33,028 nt of DNA from an uncultured Flavobacteriales bacterium. GTDB lineage: Bacteria; Bacteroidota; Bacteroidia; Flavobacteriales; Schleiferiaceae. Of this stretch, positions 19,946-31,543 are shown in pieces. The stretch is from NCBI GenBank assembly GCA_937929815.1, contig CALFUW010000075.1, positions 1 to 33,028 of the forward strand. Direction: 5' to 3'. The notes under the pieces are model-generated. The model did no database searches, had not been told where the DNA came from, and worked only from the letters and a program-made list of their open reading frames with translations. Every line of letters starts with the position of its first letter. Position 1 is the first letter of the stretch. The position numbers and the translations under genes were made by a program.

Positions 19946-20875
19946 TTAATAATCCTTTATCTCAAAAGTATTCACCCAATCTCTGTGCTCCAGCGCTTTG
20001 ATCAGCTTAGATTCTTCGCTGCCCGGTTCCGGCCGGTGATTGTATTCCCAGCGAGCCGTAGCCGGCAGACTCATTAATATAGACTCTATTCGGCCATCCG
20101 TCTTCAGACCAAAGAGCGTCCCCCGGTCATACACCAGATTAAACTCTGCATATCGACCTCTTCGTATACCTTGCCAGAATAGATGACGCTCCCCATATGG
20201 CAGGTTCTTCCTCCGTTCCACGATCGGTGCATAAGCCGGTAGAAAGGCATCGCCCGTTTCCATTACAAAATCCAGCCAATGCTCTGCCGGTTGCTGGGCA
20301 CCCGGCCTCAGATAGTCAAAGAATATTCCCCCGATACCCCTGTTTTCCTTACGGTGCTCGATGTAGAAGTATCTGTCACATTCTGCCTTAAATCTTGGAT
20401 AATACTCCGGCGAATGCCGGTCGCACGCCTGCTTAAGCACCGTGTGAAAGTGCCTTCCATCCTCCTCAAAGACATAAAACGGCGTCAGGTCAGCACCCCC
20501 GCCAAACCAGCAATCCACCAGATTACCCCCATCGTCGTAGAGCTCAAAGTACCTGAAATTGGCATGCACCGTCGGCACAAAGGGATTTAGTGGGTGAATC
20601 ACAAGCGAGATCCCGCACGCAAAAAAGCGGTTGTGGCCGACCCCTAACCGCTGTACCATTACCTCCGGCAGCAGGCCGTGTACTACGGAAGTATTCACCC
20701 CGCCTTTCTCAATCACCCCACCACCCGATAGAATCCGCGTGATACCGCCACCTCCACCCGATCGCTCCCACCGATCCTCGACAAAGCATTTTTCTCCATC
20801 CAGCTCCTCAAGCGATTGGCAGATGCGGTCTTGCAATGCATGGATGTAAGCCACAAATCGATCTTTGACAGTCAT
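19946..20875 (-). CDS. hemF: Oxygen-dependent coproporphyrinogen III oxidase
   Basis: This 309-residue cytosolic enzyme decarboxylates two propionates of coproporphyrinogen III to vinyls with O2, late in heme synthesis. Family motifs are plain: a glycine-rich GGGGGITRILSGGGV near 37-51, then NPFVPTVHANFRYFE and WFGGGADLTPFYVFEEDG, and later RGIGGIFFDYL. The length matches bacterial HemF. Its presence implies aerobic heme synthesis; the oxygen-independent HemN is not seen here. The gene lies downstream of pruA on the same strand, but a structured GC-rich element of about 170 bp separates them. Its 3' end meets psd with no gap. Confidence 0.97.
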   Translation of the reverse strand: MTVKDRFVAYIHALQDRICQSLEELDGEKCFVEDRWERSGGGGGITRILSGGGVIEKGGVNTSVVHGLLPEVMVQRLGVGHNRFFACGISLVIHPLNPFVPTVHANFRYFELYDDGGNLVDCWFGGGADLTPFYVFEEDGRHFHTVLKQACDRHSPEYYPRFKAECDRYFYIEHRKENRGIGGIFFDYLRPGAQQPAEHWLDFVMETGDAFLPAYAPIVERRKNLPYGERHLFWQGIRRGRYAEFNLVYDRGTLFGLKTDGRIESILMSLPATARWEYNHRPEPGSEESKLIKALEHRDWVNTFEIKDY

Positions 20876-20900
20876 TTTTTCTCTTTTTTATGTAGGCGTT

Positions 20901-21073
20901 CCCCAGACCGAAGCAGCTGACGCAGCTCTCGTCTGGGTCGGTGTCTTCCGCAGTCCGCTTCGCTCCCGTACTTCGTACCACCGGCTTCGCCGGTGTGCTC
21001 CAGCCACCTAACGCGGGCGACTCGCAGTACCAGAGGTGTCTTGCCATGGGTCAGACCCCTTGAAAGAGCCCAT
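20901..21073. repeat. GC-rich element with dense nested inverted repeats between pruA and hemF
   Basis: This stretch is clearly richer in G+C (about 60 percent by eye) than its surroundings. It contains at least five short perfect inverted repeats. CCCAGAC/GTCTGGG (20902-20908, 20931-20937) encloses AGCTG-ACG-CAGCT (20915-20927). GTAC-TTC-GTAC (20968-20978) is followed at once by CACCGGC-TTC-GCCGGTG (20979-20995). GGGTC-A-GACCC (21048-21058) lies near the pruA stop, with ATGGG/CCCAT (21046-21050, 21069-21073) enclosing it. A third mini-hairpin GC-TTC-GC is at 20957-20963, so three loops share the TTC/GAA triplet. It could be an interspersed REP-like repeat or an RNA structure between two genes. 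A minus-strand open frame through it is not credible as a protein. Confidence 0.6.
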
Positions 21074-21076
21074 CGA

Positions 21077-22702
21077 TCACTTCATAAACGGATAGGTATA
21101 ATCGGTCGGAGGCACAAAAGTTTCCTTTATTGATCTGGCACTCACCCAGCGCAGCAGATTCAGTTTAGAGCCCGCCTTGTCGTTGGTGCCGCTGCCACGT
21201 GCCCCGCCGAATGGTTGTTGATCTACGACAGCACCCGTAGGCTTATCATTGATATAGAAGTTCCCGGCACTATCCACCAGTTTATTTGTAGCGATCTCTA
21301 TGATATATCGGTCCTTGCTGAATATTGCTCCCGTCAGCGCATACTCACTCGTTTCATTTACCAGGTCCAGAGAGGTCTCCCAATCTTCGTCCTTGTACAC
21401 ATAGATCGTCAGCACAGGCCCGAAGATTTCCTCCACCATTGTTTTCGTTTTCGGATTTCGCGTAAGTATGACTGTAGGTTCTATAAAGTATCCAACAGAC
21501 TTATCATATGTTCCCCCGAAGATGATTTCACTGTCTTTATCCTGACGGGCATATTCGATATATGAAACGATTTTATCAAAAGCACCCTCGTGAATCACAG
21601 CCGTTACAAAGTTCGAAAAGTCACGGGGAGAGCCCATTTTGATGTCAGAAAGCATCGTTCCCAGCTCTTTTTTCACCTCTTCCCAACGATTTTGCGGAAT
21701 GTAAGCACGCGAAGCAGCCGAGCACTTCTGACCTTGATACTCAAAAGCTCCCCGAACCAGCGCCACCGCCACCTGCCGCGCATCTGCCGAGGAGTGCATC
21801 CACACATAGTCTTTTCCACCCGTCTCGCCTACAATGCGAGGGTAGGAGCGATAGAGGTGTATGTTTTCGCCTATAGTCTTCCAGATGCTCTTAAACACAG
21901 CCGTTGAGCCGGTAAAATGTATCCCGGCAAATTCAGGATGACTCAGTACGATTTGAGCAGTTTCGGCAGGATCTGTCATGATCATATTGATGACCCCCGG
22001 TGGCAGTCCCGCTTCAATGAATACCCGCATGACCACATCTGCCGAATACACCTGATATAGCGAAGGTTTCCATACCACCACATTCCCCATCAGCGCGGCA
22101 GAGGCCGGCAGATTGCCGCTGATGGCTGTGAAGTTAAATGGCGTCACTGCAAATACAAATCCCTCTAACGGCCTATATTCTATTCGATTCCATACGCCTG
22201 GCATTGAATTGGGCTGTTCTGCATAGATTTCAGCCATGTATTTCACATTAAATCTTAGAAAGTCGATCAATTCGCAGGCAGCATCTATCTCCGTCTGAAA
22301 AGCAGTCTTGCTCTGTGCAATCATGGTAGCAGCATTGACTTCAGCTCTGTAAGGGCCTGCCAGCAGATCAGCCGCTTTCAGAAAGATAGACGCCCGCTGT
22401 TCCCAGCTCATGGATGCCCACTGGCTTCGCGCTTTCAGCGCAGCATCGATGGCTGCCTGCACATGACTGCGGTCACCCATATGGTAGTGCCCTACATTGT
22501 GCTGGTGGTCATGAGGAGGCCTCACGCGTTCGGTTTTACCCGTGCGCTCCGGAGCACCATTTATATACATTGGAATATCGCGTTCGGAGCTCCATAGCTC
22601 GTCGTATTTATCCTGTAGCTCTGCGCGCTCTGCACTGTTAGGAGCATATTGTTTTATAGGCTCATTTTGTACATGAGGTAATCTAAAAAAACCTTTTATC
22701 AT
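21077..22702 (-). CDS. pruA: 1-pyrroline-5-carboxylate dehydrogenase (L-glutamate gamma-semialdehyde dehydrogenase)
   Basis: This 541-residue aldehyde dehydrogenase oxidises glutamate semialdehyde to glutamate, the second step of proline breakdown. General base E293 lies in GETGGK and the nucleophile C327 in GQKCSA; both are intact. TPFNFTAISGNLPASAALMG (187-206) is typical of the stand-alone PruA group found in animals and Bacteroidota. The C-terminus (about 480-541) includes the DQQPFGGARGSGTNDKAG segment. Length fits this group and not the PutA fusion. No proline dehydrogenase is next to it. A TAGCTTTG element lies 25 bp upstream of the start at 22702. Confidence 0.97.
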   Translation of the reverse strand: MIKGFFRLPHVQNEPIKQYAPNSAERAELQDKYDELWSSERDIPMYINGAPERTGKTERVRPPHDHQHNVGHYHMGDRSHVQAAIDAALKARSQWASMSWEQRASIFLKAADLLAGPYRAEVNAATMIAQSKTAFQTEIDAACELIDFLRFNVKYMAEIYAEQPNSMPGVWNRIEYRPLEGFVFAVTPFNFTAISGNLPASAALMGNVVVWKPSLYQVYSADVVMRVFIEAGLPPGVINMIMTDPAETAQIVLSHPEFAGIHFTGSTAVFKSIWKTIGENIHLYRSYPRIVGETGGKDYVWMHSSADARQVAVALVRGAFEYQGQKCSAASRAYIPQNRWEEVKKELGTMLSDIKMGSPRDFSNFVTAVIHEGAFDKIVSYIEYARQDKDSEIIFGGTYDKSVGYFIEPTVILTRNPKTKTMVEEIFGPVLTIYVYKDEDWETSLDLVNETSEYALTGAIFSKDRYIIEIATNKLVDSAGNFYINDKPTGAVVDQQPFGGARGSGTNDKAGSKLNLLRWVSARSIKETFVPPTDYTYPFMK

Positions 22703-29823: not shown

Positions 29824-29896
29824 GCCGGCATAGCTCAGTTGGTAGAGCAGCTGATTTGTAATCAGCTGGTCGGGGGTTCGAGTCCCTCTGCCGGCT
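29824..29896 (+). tRNA. tRNA-Thr (anticodon TGT)
   Basis: A 73-nt cloverleaf with all stems intact: acceptor GCCGGCA/TGCCGGC and anticodon loop TTTGTAA, with TGT reading ACA. No CCA is encoded. It is the first tRNA of the operon. Confidence 0.97.
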
Positions 29897-29930
29897 CACA
29901 TTACAGAACGTTCTTTTAAACTCATCGATT

Positions 29931-30011
29931 GGGGAGATTCCAGAGTGGCCAAATGGGGCAGACTGTAAATCTGTTGCGAAAGCTTCGGAGGTTCGAATCC
30001 TTCTCTCCCCA
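29931..30011 (+). tRNA. tRNA-Tyr (anticodon GTA)
   Basis: An 81-nt cloverleaf with a long variable arm, as in bacterial tRNA-Tyr; acceptor GGGGAGA/TCTCCCC and anticodon loop CTGTAAA with GTA. CCA is not encoded; discriminator A. Confidence 0.97.
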
Positions 30012-30021
30012 CAAGTTATTG

Positions 30022-30094
30022 GCGGAAGTAGCTCAGTTGGTAGAGCATCAGCCTTCCAAGCTGAGGGCCGCGGGTTCGAATCCCGTCTTCCGCT
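30022..30094 (+). tRNA. tRNA-Gly (anticodon TCC)
   Basis: A 73-nt cloverleaf: acceptor GCGGAAG/CTTCCGC, anticodon stem TCAGC/GCTGA with loop CTTCCAA (TCC reading GGA). It lies 10 bp after tRNA-Tyr. CCA is not encoded. Confidence 0.97.
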
Positions 30095-30103
30095 CAAAGG
30101 TAA

Positions 30104-30175
30104 GCCGTTGTAGCTCAGTGGTAGAGTGTTTCCTTGGTAAGGAAAAGGTCGAGGGTTCAATTCCCTCCATCGGCT
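30104..30175 (+). tRNA. tRNA-Thr (anticodon GGT), with an acceptor-stem U-U mismatch
   Basis: A 72-nt cloverleaf with anticodon loop TTGGTAA (GGT reading ACC), T-stem GAGGG/CCCTC and D-stem GCTC/GAGT. The acceptor GCCGTTG pairs with CATCGGC except at position 5-68 (30108 and 30170), where U faces U. All other stems are sound, so it is probably functional. It lies 9 bp after tRNA-Gly and 42 bp before tuf. Confidence 0.93.
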
Positions 30176-30217
30176 CTGATTTTTTTTAATTAATCAACTT
30201 TAATTGAGCTTCTTAAA

Positions 30218-31405
30218 ATGGCAAAAGAGCAATTTATCAGAACAAAGCCCCACGTAAACGTGGGTACGATAGGTCACGTTGACCACGGAAAGACCACCCT
30301 TACAGCTGCCATCACGAAAGTATTGGCCGACAAGGGATTTGCTCAGGCACGCAGTTTTGATTCCATCGATAATGCACCTGAAGAAAAAGAAAGAGGTATC
30401 ACCATTAACACTGCCCACGTAGAGTACGAGACCGAGAAAAGACACTATGCGCACGTGGATTGTCCAGGTCACGCAGACTATGTTAAAAACATGGTAACTG
30501 GTGCAGCGCAAATGGATGGTGCCATTCTAGTGGTTGCAGCTACCGATGGCCCAATGCCACAGACCCGCGAACACATTCTCCTTGCTCGTCAAGTAGGTGT
30601 ACCCAGAATAGTGGTATTCCTAAACAAAGTAGATATGGTTGATGATGAAGAGCTTCTCGAACTTGTGGAAATGGAAGTTCGTGAACTCCTTTCATTTTAT
30701 GAATATGATGGGGACAATACTCCTGTAATAAAAGGATCAGCCCTAGGTGCTCTCAATGGCGAACCAAAGTGGGTAGATACTGTAATGCAACTCATGGATG
30801 CGGTAGATACCTGGATTGAAGATCCTGTAAGAGATAAGGATAAGCCCTTCCTCATGCCCATCGAAGATGTATTCACCATTACAGGACGTGGTACTGTTGC
30901 CACAGGTCGTATTGAAACAGGAGTTATTAACTCTGGTGAAGCTGTTGACATCATCGGCTTCGGTGACGAAAAGCTTACCTCCACTGTTACAGGTGTTGAA
31001 ATGTTTCGCAAAATACTTGACAGGGGAGAAGCTGGTGACAATGTGGGTCTGCTGCTTCGCGGTATTGAAAAATCTCAAATTCGCCGTGGTATGGTTATAT
31101 GCAAACCAGGCTCACAGACTCCGCACAAGAAGTTTAAAGCTGAGGTGTATATCCTTAAAAAGGAAGAAGGTGGACGTCACACTCCCTTCCACAACAAATA
31201 TCGCCCTCAGTTTTACTTGCGTACAACTGACGTAACAGGTGAAATTATCCTTCCCGAGGGTGTAGATATGGTGATGCCTGGTGACAACCTTACTATCACT
31301 GTAAATCTTATCACCCCAGTTGCGATCAGCAAAAACCTTAGATTTGCAATCCGCGAAGGAGGTCGTACTGTAGGTGCTGGACAGGTAACTGAAATTATTG
31401 AGTAA
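30218..31405 (+). CDS. tuf: Translation elongation factor EF-Tu
   Basis: This 395-residue GTPase carries aminoacyl-tRNA to the ribosome. The G1 motif is GHVDHGKT (19-26), the switch I threonine lies in RGITIN (59-64), G3 is DCPGH (81-85) and G4 is NKVD (136-139). Domains 2 and 3 follow without change, ending [12 protein letters not shown]. The tRNA cluster before it and trpT-secE-nusG after it match the order seen in E. coli (thrU-tyrU-glyT-thrT-tufB). A hairpin after the stop (31427-31465) may partly end transcription. This is the only tuf in the window. Highly expressed codons (AAC, GAC, CGT) are frequent. Confidence 0.99.
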
Positions 31406-31426
31406 ATCATTGATATTCAGAATTTA

Positions 31427-31465
31427 AAAAGGTGTTTCGGATTCTACAGGTTCGAAACACCTTTT
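31427..31465 (+). terminator. Hairpin between tuf and tRNA-Trp, terminator or processing site
   Basis: A perfect 13-bp stem, AAAAGGTGTTTCG (31427-31439) with CGAAACACCTTTT (31453-31465), encloses a 13-nt loop. The four T belong to the stem, so termination would be weaker than usual, and it lies only 8 bp before tRNA-Trp. It may reduce read-through into secE-nusG or mark an RNA processing site. Confidence 0.75.
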
Positions 31466-31472
31466 ACCACTT

Positions 31473-31543
31473 ACGGGTGTAGTTCAAGGGTAGAATAGCG
31501 GTCTCCAAAACCGTTGATGGGAGTTCGAATCTCTCCACCCGTG
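31473..31543 (+). tRNA. tRNA-Trp (anticodon CCA)
   Basis: A 71-nt cloverleaf: acceptor ACGGGTG/CACCCGT with discriminator G, anticodon loop CTCCAAA (CCA reading TGG). The G discriminator is a Trp identity element. It sits between tuf and secE, a common arrangement. Confidence 0.97.

What the first reader, a model, noticed from the sequence alone, without database searches (positions are those of the whole stretch)
20901..21073. GC-rich element of nested and tandem hairpins between pruA and hemF
In 173 bp there are at least five perfect inverted repeats. They include adjacent GTAC-TTC-GTAC and CACCGGC-TTC-GCCGGTG, and three mini-loops that share the same TTC (GAA on the minus strand) triplet. 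Base composition differs sharply from the flanks. Such composition and symmetry suggest an interspersed REP-like repeat, possibly mobilised by a REP-associated transposase, or a structured RNA between two cotranscribed genes. I do not know this exact element.
Basis: partly seen in the sequence, partly recalled or inferred. Interest (0 to 1): 0.6.

Follow-up and report, generated by a model that had tools for sequence, protein, structure and literature searches.

The report
Dispersed palindromic DNA element in Bacteroidota
The hairpin-rich stretch between two ordinary genes is one copy of a roughly 120-base folded DNA element scattered through the chromosomes of many Bacteroidota; part of it is known as the unexplained 'Flavo-1 RNA', and it looks more like a small hitch-hiking mobile element than a regulatory RNA.

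Summary
The hairpins are real, but the unit is 20895-21014 (120 nt). Bases 21015-21073 of the finding belong to local flank, not to the repeat. BLAST finds no second copy in this 70%-complete MAG. A covariance model and a core-motif search find four more copies in it, at least 39 in Thermaurantimonas aggregans, 44 in Schleiferia thermophila, and others across Bacteroidota. The element folds as a closed three-way junction (P1, P2, P3/P4) carrying P5 and P6. Of 21 modelled pairs, 16 show compensatory changes; slid controls show 2-7. Flavobacterium copies are Rfam RF01705 (Flavo-1, function unknown), matched on the opposite strand; Flavo-1 leaves P1 and P2 unpaired, and the window copy itself does not match it. 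The 5' edge is T-rich and ends in TTTG. Copies sit in every gene arrangement. All four other copies in this MAG lie beside genes whose T. aggregans counterparts lack one. The window copy is shared with T. aggregans and absent from S. thermophila. Wobble pairs show no strand preference (GU 3 vs AC 5; 25 vs 21), unlike tRNAs (5 vs 0). I favour a non-autonomous, REP/MITE-like element selected as folded DNA. It is not a RAYT-REP: no GTAG/CGTC tag and no Y1 transposase in either Thermaurantimonas genome. The mobilising enzyme is unknown.

The parts
20876..20894 (+). T-rich 5' flank. Consensus over 134 copies ends TTTG; here it ends TGTA. It directly abuts the hemF start codon (CAT at 20873-20875).
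   Evidence: T fraction in the 25 nt on the 5' side 0.50, on the 3' side 0.23; positions -4..-1 = TTTG in 83/81/73/89% of copies
20895..21014 (+). The whole element: one 120-nt copy of the dispersed family
   Evidence: CM R1, 106.4 bits, full length; boundaries from 16 to 68 copies with unrelated flanks. The window copy is one of the model's training sequences.
20896..20900 (+). P1, 5' strand (GCGTT); pairs with 21010-21014 (AACGC) and closes the element
   Evidence: 644 of 670 P1 cells are Watson-Crick over 134 copies; GCGTG/CACGC, GGCTG/CAGCC and GGGTG/CACCC variants
20902..20908 (+). P2, 5' strand (CCCAGAC); pairs with 20931-20937 (GTCTGGG). The stem continues inward and is highly variable in sequence between copies.
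20940..20946 (+). P3, 5' strand (GGTGTCT, one T-C mismatch); pairs with 21002-21008
   Evidence: Helix 3: 4 of 6 pairs with compensatory changes, 96-97% of cells paired
20947..20949 (+). Conserved internal loop TCC facing TCC (20999-21001)
   Evidence: Alignment
20950..20952 (+). P4, 5' strand (GCA); pairs with 20996-20998 (TGC)
   Evidence: All 3 pairs covary, 99-100% paired
20953..20967 (+). Conserved CGCTTCGCTCC-type segment (GC-TTC-GC mini-hairpin possible), characteristic of this sub-family
   Evidence: Alignment; MFE fold
20968..20978 (+). GTGC...GCAC in other copies; carries long insertions in T. aggregans copies.
20979..20995 (+).
21010..21014 (+). P1, 3' strand (AACGC); right end of the element
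21015..21076 (+). Spacer to the pruA stop codon. It belongs to the locus, not to the repeat, although it lies largely inside the finding's coordinates.
19946..20875 (-). hemF (coproporphyrinogen III oxidase), the neighbour downstream in transcription
   Evidence: Pfam PF01218, E 4.7e-128
21077..22702 (-).
   Evidence: Pfam PF00171, E 5.3e-97

Best explanation
20895-21014 is one copy of a family of dispersed, non-coding, palindromic elements of Bacteroidota chromosomes. It works like a REP/MITE. The conserved thing is a fold: a closed three-way junction with complementary ends (P1), a variable hairpin arm (P2) and a long arm (P3/P4) bearing extra hairpins (P5, P6). SHOWN: the fold, the dispersal, the sharp common ends, the T-rich TTTG 5' edge, the species-to-species turnover of copies, and the lack of strand preference in wobble pairs. 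INFERRED: the element is spread in trans as folded single-stranded (or cruciform) DNA by an enzyme of the host or of another element, which joins it at T-rich intergenic sites next to TTTG. No copy examined carries an open reading frame, and the enzyme is unknown. Here it entered the pruA-hemF spacer before T. aggregans and the window's species separated (or was lost in Schleiferia). It has kept its pairing in place since then; any effect on pruA or hemF expression would be secondary.
For: Copies: G000 C75 and C109 (strong), C121 (weak), plus core-motif copies C33 and C108; T. aggregans 39, S. thermophila 44. The same ends with unrelated flanks in 66 copies. Compensatory change: 16 of 21 pairs, 148 cells against 35 in shuffles, covariation score 0.310 against 0.014-0.065 when slid. 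Every pairing difference between the orthologous window and T. aggregans copies that I could identify by eye is compensated: P1 TA/GC, P4 CG/TA, P5 AT/GC. Natural site without the element: the hemF-pruA spacer of S. thermophila is about 80 nt and lacks it. The genes beside the four other G000 copies (recA, purL, acs and a carboxylase subunit, names read from sequence) have no element at the corresponding place in T. aggregans. Wobble: P1 GU 3 vs AC 5 of 670; P3 25 vs 21 of 702; tRNA control 5 vs 0. All gene arrangements: tandem sense 25, tandem antisense 11, convergent 14, divergent 12. Adjacent inverted pairs in three MAGs. Few occurrences in viral contigs, none in phages, one partial plausible match in plasmids.
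Against: No mobilising enzyme identified; no target-site duplication or exact pre-insertion sequence could be read because intergenic DNA diverges too fast between the genomes held. Pairing kept in place between two species implies some constraint after insertion, which a purely selfish element need not show (gene conversion between copies could also do it). The wobble argument rests on a small tRNA control (20 tRNAs), GC-rich pairs and anchor-based counting. In the CM-fitted alignment A3 GU exceeds AC (38 vs 15), though that alignment is fitted to the plus strand.
Confidence: 0.62

Rival explanations
1. It is a structured RNA (a distant, extended Flavo-1): an sRNA, or a cis-acting element in the pruA-hemF mRNA (attenuator or mRNA-stability element in the hemF leader), spread by duplication.
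For: Flavobacterium copies match Rfam Flavo-1, which was published as probably an RNA and probably not cis-regulatory (PMC2864571). Strong covariation. Pairing kept in place between two species. The minus strand, which is the hemF sense strand, folds better than its shuffles (z -2.23).
Against: All gene orientations; no GU excess on either strand in unfitted counts; F. psychrophilum transcriptome: Flavo-1 hits in sense or antisense and many not transcribed; copy number and turnover typical of a repeat.
Confidence: 0.22
2. It is a true REP mobilised by a RAYT (Y1 HUH transposase), with the enzyme lost or missed.
For: Hairpins, an imperfect 4-nt TTTG edge, adjacent inverted pairs, and many copies without a coding gene; all are REP/REPIN-like.
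Against: No Y1_Tnp in G000 or T. aggregans; the one in S. thermophila is flanked by another palindrome; no GTAG or CGTC tag in the consensus; 120 nt with long-range P1/P2/P3 pairing rather than a single 20-40-bp palindrome.
Confidence: 0.1
3. It is a retro-element: the T tract would be a poly-A tail of the minus-strand RNA, copied in by a reverse transcriptase.
For: A T-rich tract consistently at one end whatever the gene orientation.
Against: No RVT_1 gene in G000, T. aggregans or S. thermophila; the tract is weak in many S. thermophila copies.
Confidence: 0.04
4. Chance cluster of small palindromes in GC-rich spacer DNA.
For: Folding energy alone is near that of shuffles; BLAST finds no second copy in the MAG.
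Against: Covariation in 16 of 21 pairs and dispersed homologues with common ends.
Confidence: 0.01

Closest known systems
Flavo-1 RNA, Rfam RF01705 (Weinberg et al. 2010, PMC2864571)
   Same: At Flavobacterium loci, model R1 and Flavo-1 hit the same places (for example L065, L066, L073, L152). They share the P3/P4-type long arm with its internal loops.
   Different: Flavo-1 is modelled on the opposite strand, leaves the P1 and P2 segments unpaired, and does not match the window copy. The Schleiferiaceae form adds P5/P6 and the CGCTTCGCTCC segment and reaches 39-44 copies per genome.
REP / REPIN / BIME with RAYT (GTAG- and CGTC-tagged repeats, PMC3733652, PMC2817692, PMC3116915)
   Same: Non-coding palindromic extragenic repeats, many copies, some adjacent inverted pairs, a conserved 4-nt edge.
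   Different: About 120 nt with a long-range closed three-way junction; edge TTTG, not GTAG or CGTC; no RAYT found in the two Thermaurantimonas genomes.
[quoted passage not shown]
   Same: Short, non-autonomous, complementary ends, dispersed.
   Different: The ends are only 5-6 bp and vary in compensation with each other across genera; interior arms are conserved as structure; no parent transposon or target duplication seen.
Integron attC sites (from general knowledge, not tested here)
   Same: Works-like comparison only: a recombination site recognised as folded single-stranded DNA, with structure conserved over sequence.
   Different: No cassette arrays and no attC core motifs (RYYYAAC/GTTRRRY at the ends).

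Membership tests
Flavo-1 RNA (RF01705) | Covariance-model score at or above gathering | tested here: not met
   Window copy: no match at E<=1 nor at gathering in the whole window. Flavobacterium relatives do match, up to 68.6 bits.
Flavo-1 RNA (RF01705) | Homology of the core to Flavo-1 copies | tested here: met
   R1 and Flavo-1 hit the same stretches in L065, L066, L073, L148, L152. Link is by shared loci; R1 scores there are 26-38 bits.
Flavo-1 RNA (RF01705) | Acts as a transcribed RNA of defined strand | not testable with these tools
   No transcriptome held. Indirect signs against.
REP / RAYT system | Multiple extragenic palindromic copies per genome | tested here: met
   5 in the incomplete MAG, 39 in T. 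aggregans, 44 in S. thermophila
REP / RAYT system | GTAG or CGTC tag at one end | tested here: not met
   Consensus edge is TTTG in n=134. The GTAG letters at 20892-20895 of the window straddle its edge and are not the consensus.
REP / RAYT system | Y1 (PF01797) transposase in the genome, flanked by the repeat | tested here: not met
   None in G000 or T. aggregans; one in S. thermophila flanked by CAACGATTAAAATCGTTG instead. G000 is only 70% complete.
MITE | Inverted terminal repeats | tested here: met
   P1, 5 bp: 644 of 670 cells Watson-Crick over 134 copies
MITE | Target-site duplication | tested here: inconclusive
   Sites without the element found, but flanks too diverged to read the junction
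MITE | Parent autonomous transposon with the same ends | tested here: inconclusive
   In the fetched loci, 69 5'-half matches had an exactly complementary 3' end within 300 nt; 5 did not, of which 4 are ordinary or diverged short copies and none shows an inserted gene. Whole genomes were not scanned for this.
Retro-element | Reverse transcriptase in the genome | tested here: not met
   No RVT_1 in G000, G001 or G014

The most novel reading that the evidence does not exclude
Flavo-1 and this element are one Bacteroidota-wide family of mobile sites that act as folded DNA. They would be moved as a closed three-way junction into T-rich TTTG targets by an enzyme that is neither a RAYT nor a reverse transcriptase: a new kind of structure-guided DNA mobility, with the Rfam 'sRNA' label wrong in kind and strand.
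Probability: 0.3. Interest if true: 0.72.

Novelty: new variant of a known kind. Interest (0 to 1): 0.52.

Why it matters
Flavo-1 has been listed since 2010 as a probable sRNA of unknown function, and a transcriptome study of F. psychrophilum could make no sense of its positions. This work gives the family a complete fold with defined ends. It shows copies gained or lost between species and points to selection on DNA rather than on RNA of one strand. That makes the question testable by finding the enzyme that moves it. It would also correct annotations and explain a common source of hairpin-rich intergenic DNA in Bacteroidota.

Tried and rejected
Energy-based folding as a test: weak, superseded by covariation. 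BLAST for copies in its own genome: missed four diverged copies. The 3' part with GGGTCAGACCC as a second repeat: no recurrence beyond chance. Rfam match of the window: none. RAYT and reverse transcriptase: absent where needed. Insertion specifically behind intrinsic terminators: by eye several copies follow one, but a strict count gave only 9 of 132 on the 5' side and 4 of 132 on the 3' side, so I claim only T-richness. Replication-strand bias: both orientations occur along the largest S. thermophila contig (by eye only). Phage or plasmid carriage: not supported. Autonomous form with a gene inside: none in fetched loci. Literature: beyond Flavo-1 no description of the extended element was found in the open-access library; subscription journals were not covered. 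The first tRNA wobble control was mis-indexed and was redone.

Full report
WHAT WAS CHECKED. The stretch lies in the 201-bp spacer between hemF (PF01218) and an aldehyde dehydrogenase gene (PF00171; pruA), both on the minus strand. The reported palindromes are there, and there are more short-loop palindromes than in dinucleotide shuffles (4 against 0.86). G+C is 65% against 44-58% nearby. BLAST finds only one copy in the window's genome, a 1.45-Mb, 70%-complete MAG.

IT IS A DISPERSED FAMILY. A search of relatives showed 13 or more scored matches each in a congener (G001) and in a genome of the same family (G014). The copies share an element of about 120-140 nt with the same two ends, GGCGTG...CACGC, inside unrelated flanks. 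The remainder up to 21073 is local spacer.

FOLD. Sixteen copies gave alignment A1. The structure is P1 closing the element, P2 a hairpin arm, and P3 and P4 separated by a conserved TCC/TCC internal loop: 94.9% of cells pair, with 39 doubly changed cells against 13.3 in shuffles. A covariance model (R1) found 39 copies in T. aggregans, 44 in S. thermophila, and 3 in the window's MAG (C75, C109, and a weak C121) at E<=0.01. Two more copies of a longer sub-type, C33 and C108, carry the exact core motif, so the incomplete MAG has at least five. On 68 aligned matches, 16 of 21 pairs have compensatory changes and the covariation score is 0.310, against 0.106 shuffled and 0.014-0.065 slid. The minimum-energy fold of the exact window element agrees with this structure on both strands and adds P5 (GTAC-TTC-GTAC) and P6 (CACCGGC-TTC-GCCGGTG). 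P1 varies as a unit between genera: GCGTG/CACGC, GCGTT/AACGC, GGCTG/CAGCC in Hymenobacter, GGGTG/CACCC in a Chitinophagales MAG. Alignments made with the model lean towards its structure; the unfitted P1 count over 134 copies (644 of 670 Watson-Crick) does not depend on pair fitting beyond end placement.

DISTRIBUTION. The core motif GGGTCGGGCTN{1,2}TCNG occurs in most genomes of one genus (g21; from the Flavo-1 matches and copy style probably Flavobacterium) at 1-8 copies with almost no control matches, and patchily elsewhere. In many other families the counts equal the control. The model finds copies in Chitinophagales and Chitinophagaceae, Hymenobacter, Microscillaceae, Cytophagaceae, Lentimicrobiaceae and Chryseobacterium records. 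Loci from other phyla gave nothing above 24 bits. Few viral contigs, no phage and at most one plausible plasmid record carry it.

RELATION TO FLAVO-1. Flavobacterium copies are hits of Rfam RF01705. The Rfam model lies on the opposite strand and leaves P1 and P2 unpaired; the window copy does not match it. The element is therefore a homologous but divergent and extended form, not a member by Rfam's own test. Weinberg et al. list Flavo-1 as a probable RNA, not cis-regulatory. In F. psychrophilum its hits were in sense, antisense or untranscribed DNA, with no clue to function.

MOBILITY AND CONTEXT. Copies lie in tandem sense (25), tandem antisense (11), convergent (14) and divergent (12) spacers. 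The 5' flank is T-rich (0.50 against 0.23 on the 3' side) and ends TTTG; the 3' flank is nearly free. The T-richness is also seen where the neighbouring gene points away, so it is not only a terminator tail; a strict count of terminators was low. S. thermophila keeps hemF next to pruA but with an about 80-nt spacer and no element, while T. aggregans has the element at the same place. The other four copies of the MAG lie beside genes whose T. aggregans counterparts have no element there. Copies are thus gained or lost between congeners, while the window copy is older. Between its two orthologues the identifiable pairing differences are compensated (P1 TA/GC, P4 CG/TA, P5 AT/GC), so the pairing has been kept in place.

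DNA OR RNA. In an RNA, G-U pairs are tolerated and their mirror image, A-C, is not. Unfitted counts give GU 3 and AC 5 in P1 (670 cells), and GU 25 and AC 21 in P3 (702 cells). A small control of 20 tRNA acceptor stems gives GU 5 and AC 0. In A2 the numbers are 5 and 6; in A3, fitted to the plus strand and poorer, 38 and 15. I read this as selection acting on DNA, or on both strands alike. It is an inference, not proof.

MECHANISM. Best supported: a non-autonomous element spread as folded single-stranded or cruciform DNA by a trans-acting enzyme. RAYT/Y1 is absent from both Thermaurantimonas genomes, and the one Y1 gene in S. thermophila is associated with another palindrome. Reverse transcriptase is absent from all three. 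No copy with a gene inside was seen in the fetched loci. Adjacent inverted pairs occur in three MAGs, as in REPINs. The enzyme and the exact joining step remain unknown.

VERDICT. A real, interesting, incompletely known family: a new variant of a known kind (Flavo-1 by homology, REP/MITE by mode of life). Its main value is to turn an unexplained 'sRNA' into a testable mobile-DNA hypothesis.

Noticed in passing
window 29824-31543: Five tRNA genes on the plus strand, four of them clustered at 29824-30175. Ordinary.
   Followed up: no
G000 C33 (L306), C108 (L307), C121 (L092); T. aggregans L311-L316, L105: A second, longer sub-type (about 170-180 nt, core GGGTCGGGCTATCCGCT...CGGCTCATACCGCTCCTATCCCTCACGC) coexists with the window's sub-type in both Thermaurantimonas genomes.
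   Followed up: partly
L050, L042, L105 (T. aggregans): The P2 arm is expanded into tandem repeats (e.g. GGGCTTGCCCAGGCATGGAGCCGACAGGCGCCTTCGCCATA), so the element can grow a minisatellite from one arm.
   Followed up: no
L157 1483-1531 (genome G437): A minimal copy of about 49 nt, TTTGGGCGTGTCCCTCCGGGTCGGGCTATCCGCTTCTATCCCTCACGC, keeps P1, P2 and the start of P3 only.
   Followed up: no
L280 6752-6964; L169 2345-2567; L162 5843-6089; L257 5783-6327: Pairs of copies in inverted, tail-to-tail arrangement about 15-250 nt apart, like REPINs.
   Followed up: partly
L040 1250-2040 (S. thermophila): A Y1 transposase gene of S. thermophila is flanked by several copies of a different palindrome, CCAACGATTAAAATCGTTGGGTATG: a likely true RAYT/REP system in the same genome.
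   Followed up: no
T. aggregans copies L098, L100, L052, L101, L049, L047: In several T. aggregans copies the 3' flank continues with a shared hairpin plus T run (GGCAGCAGCCTTCGGCCGCTTTTAAT), terminator-like, absent from S. thermophila copies.
   Followed up: no
L283 (S. thermophila hemF-pruA spacer): Where the element is missing, the spacer holds a terminator-like hairpin for pruA (GTGAC...GTCAC followed by T6 on the minus strand), so the element may replace a terminator.
   Followed up: no
L306 (G000:C33) against L324 and L330 (T. aggregans): The acetyl-CoA synthetase gene beside this G000 copy seems to lack roughly 430 bp near its 3' end compared with T. aggregans: deletion or assembly error.
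   Followed up: no
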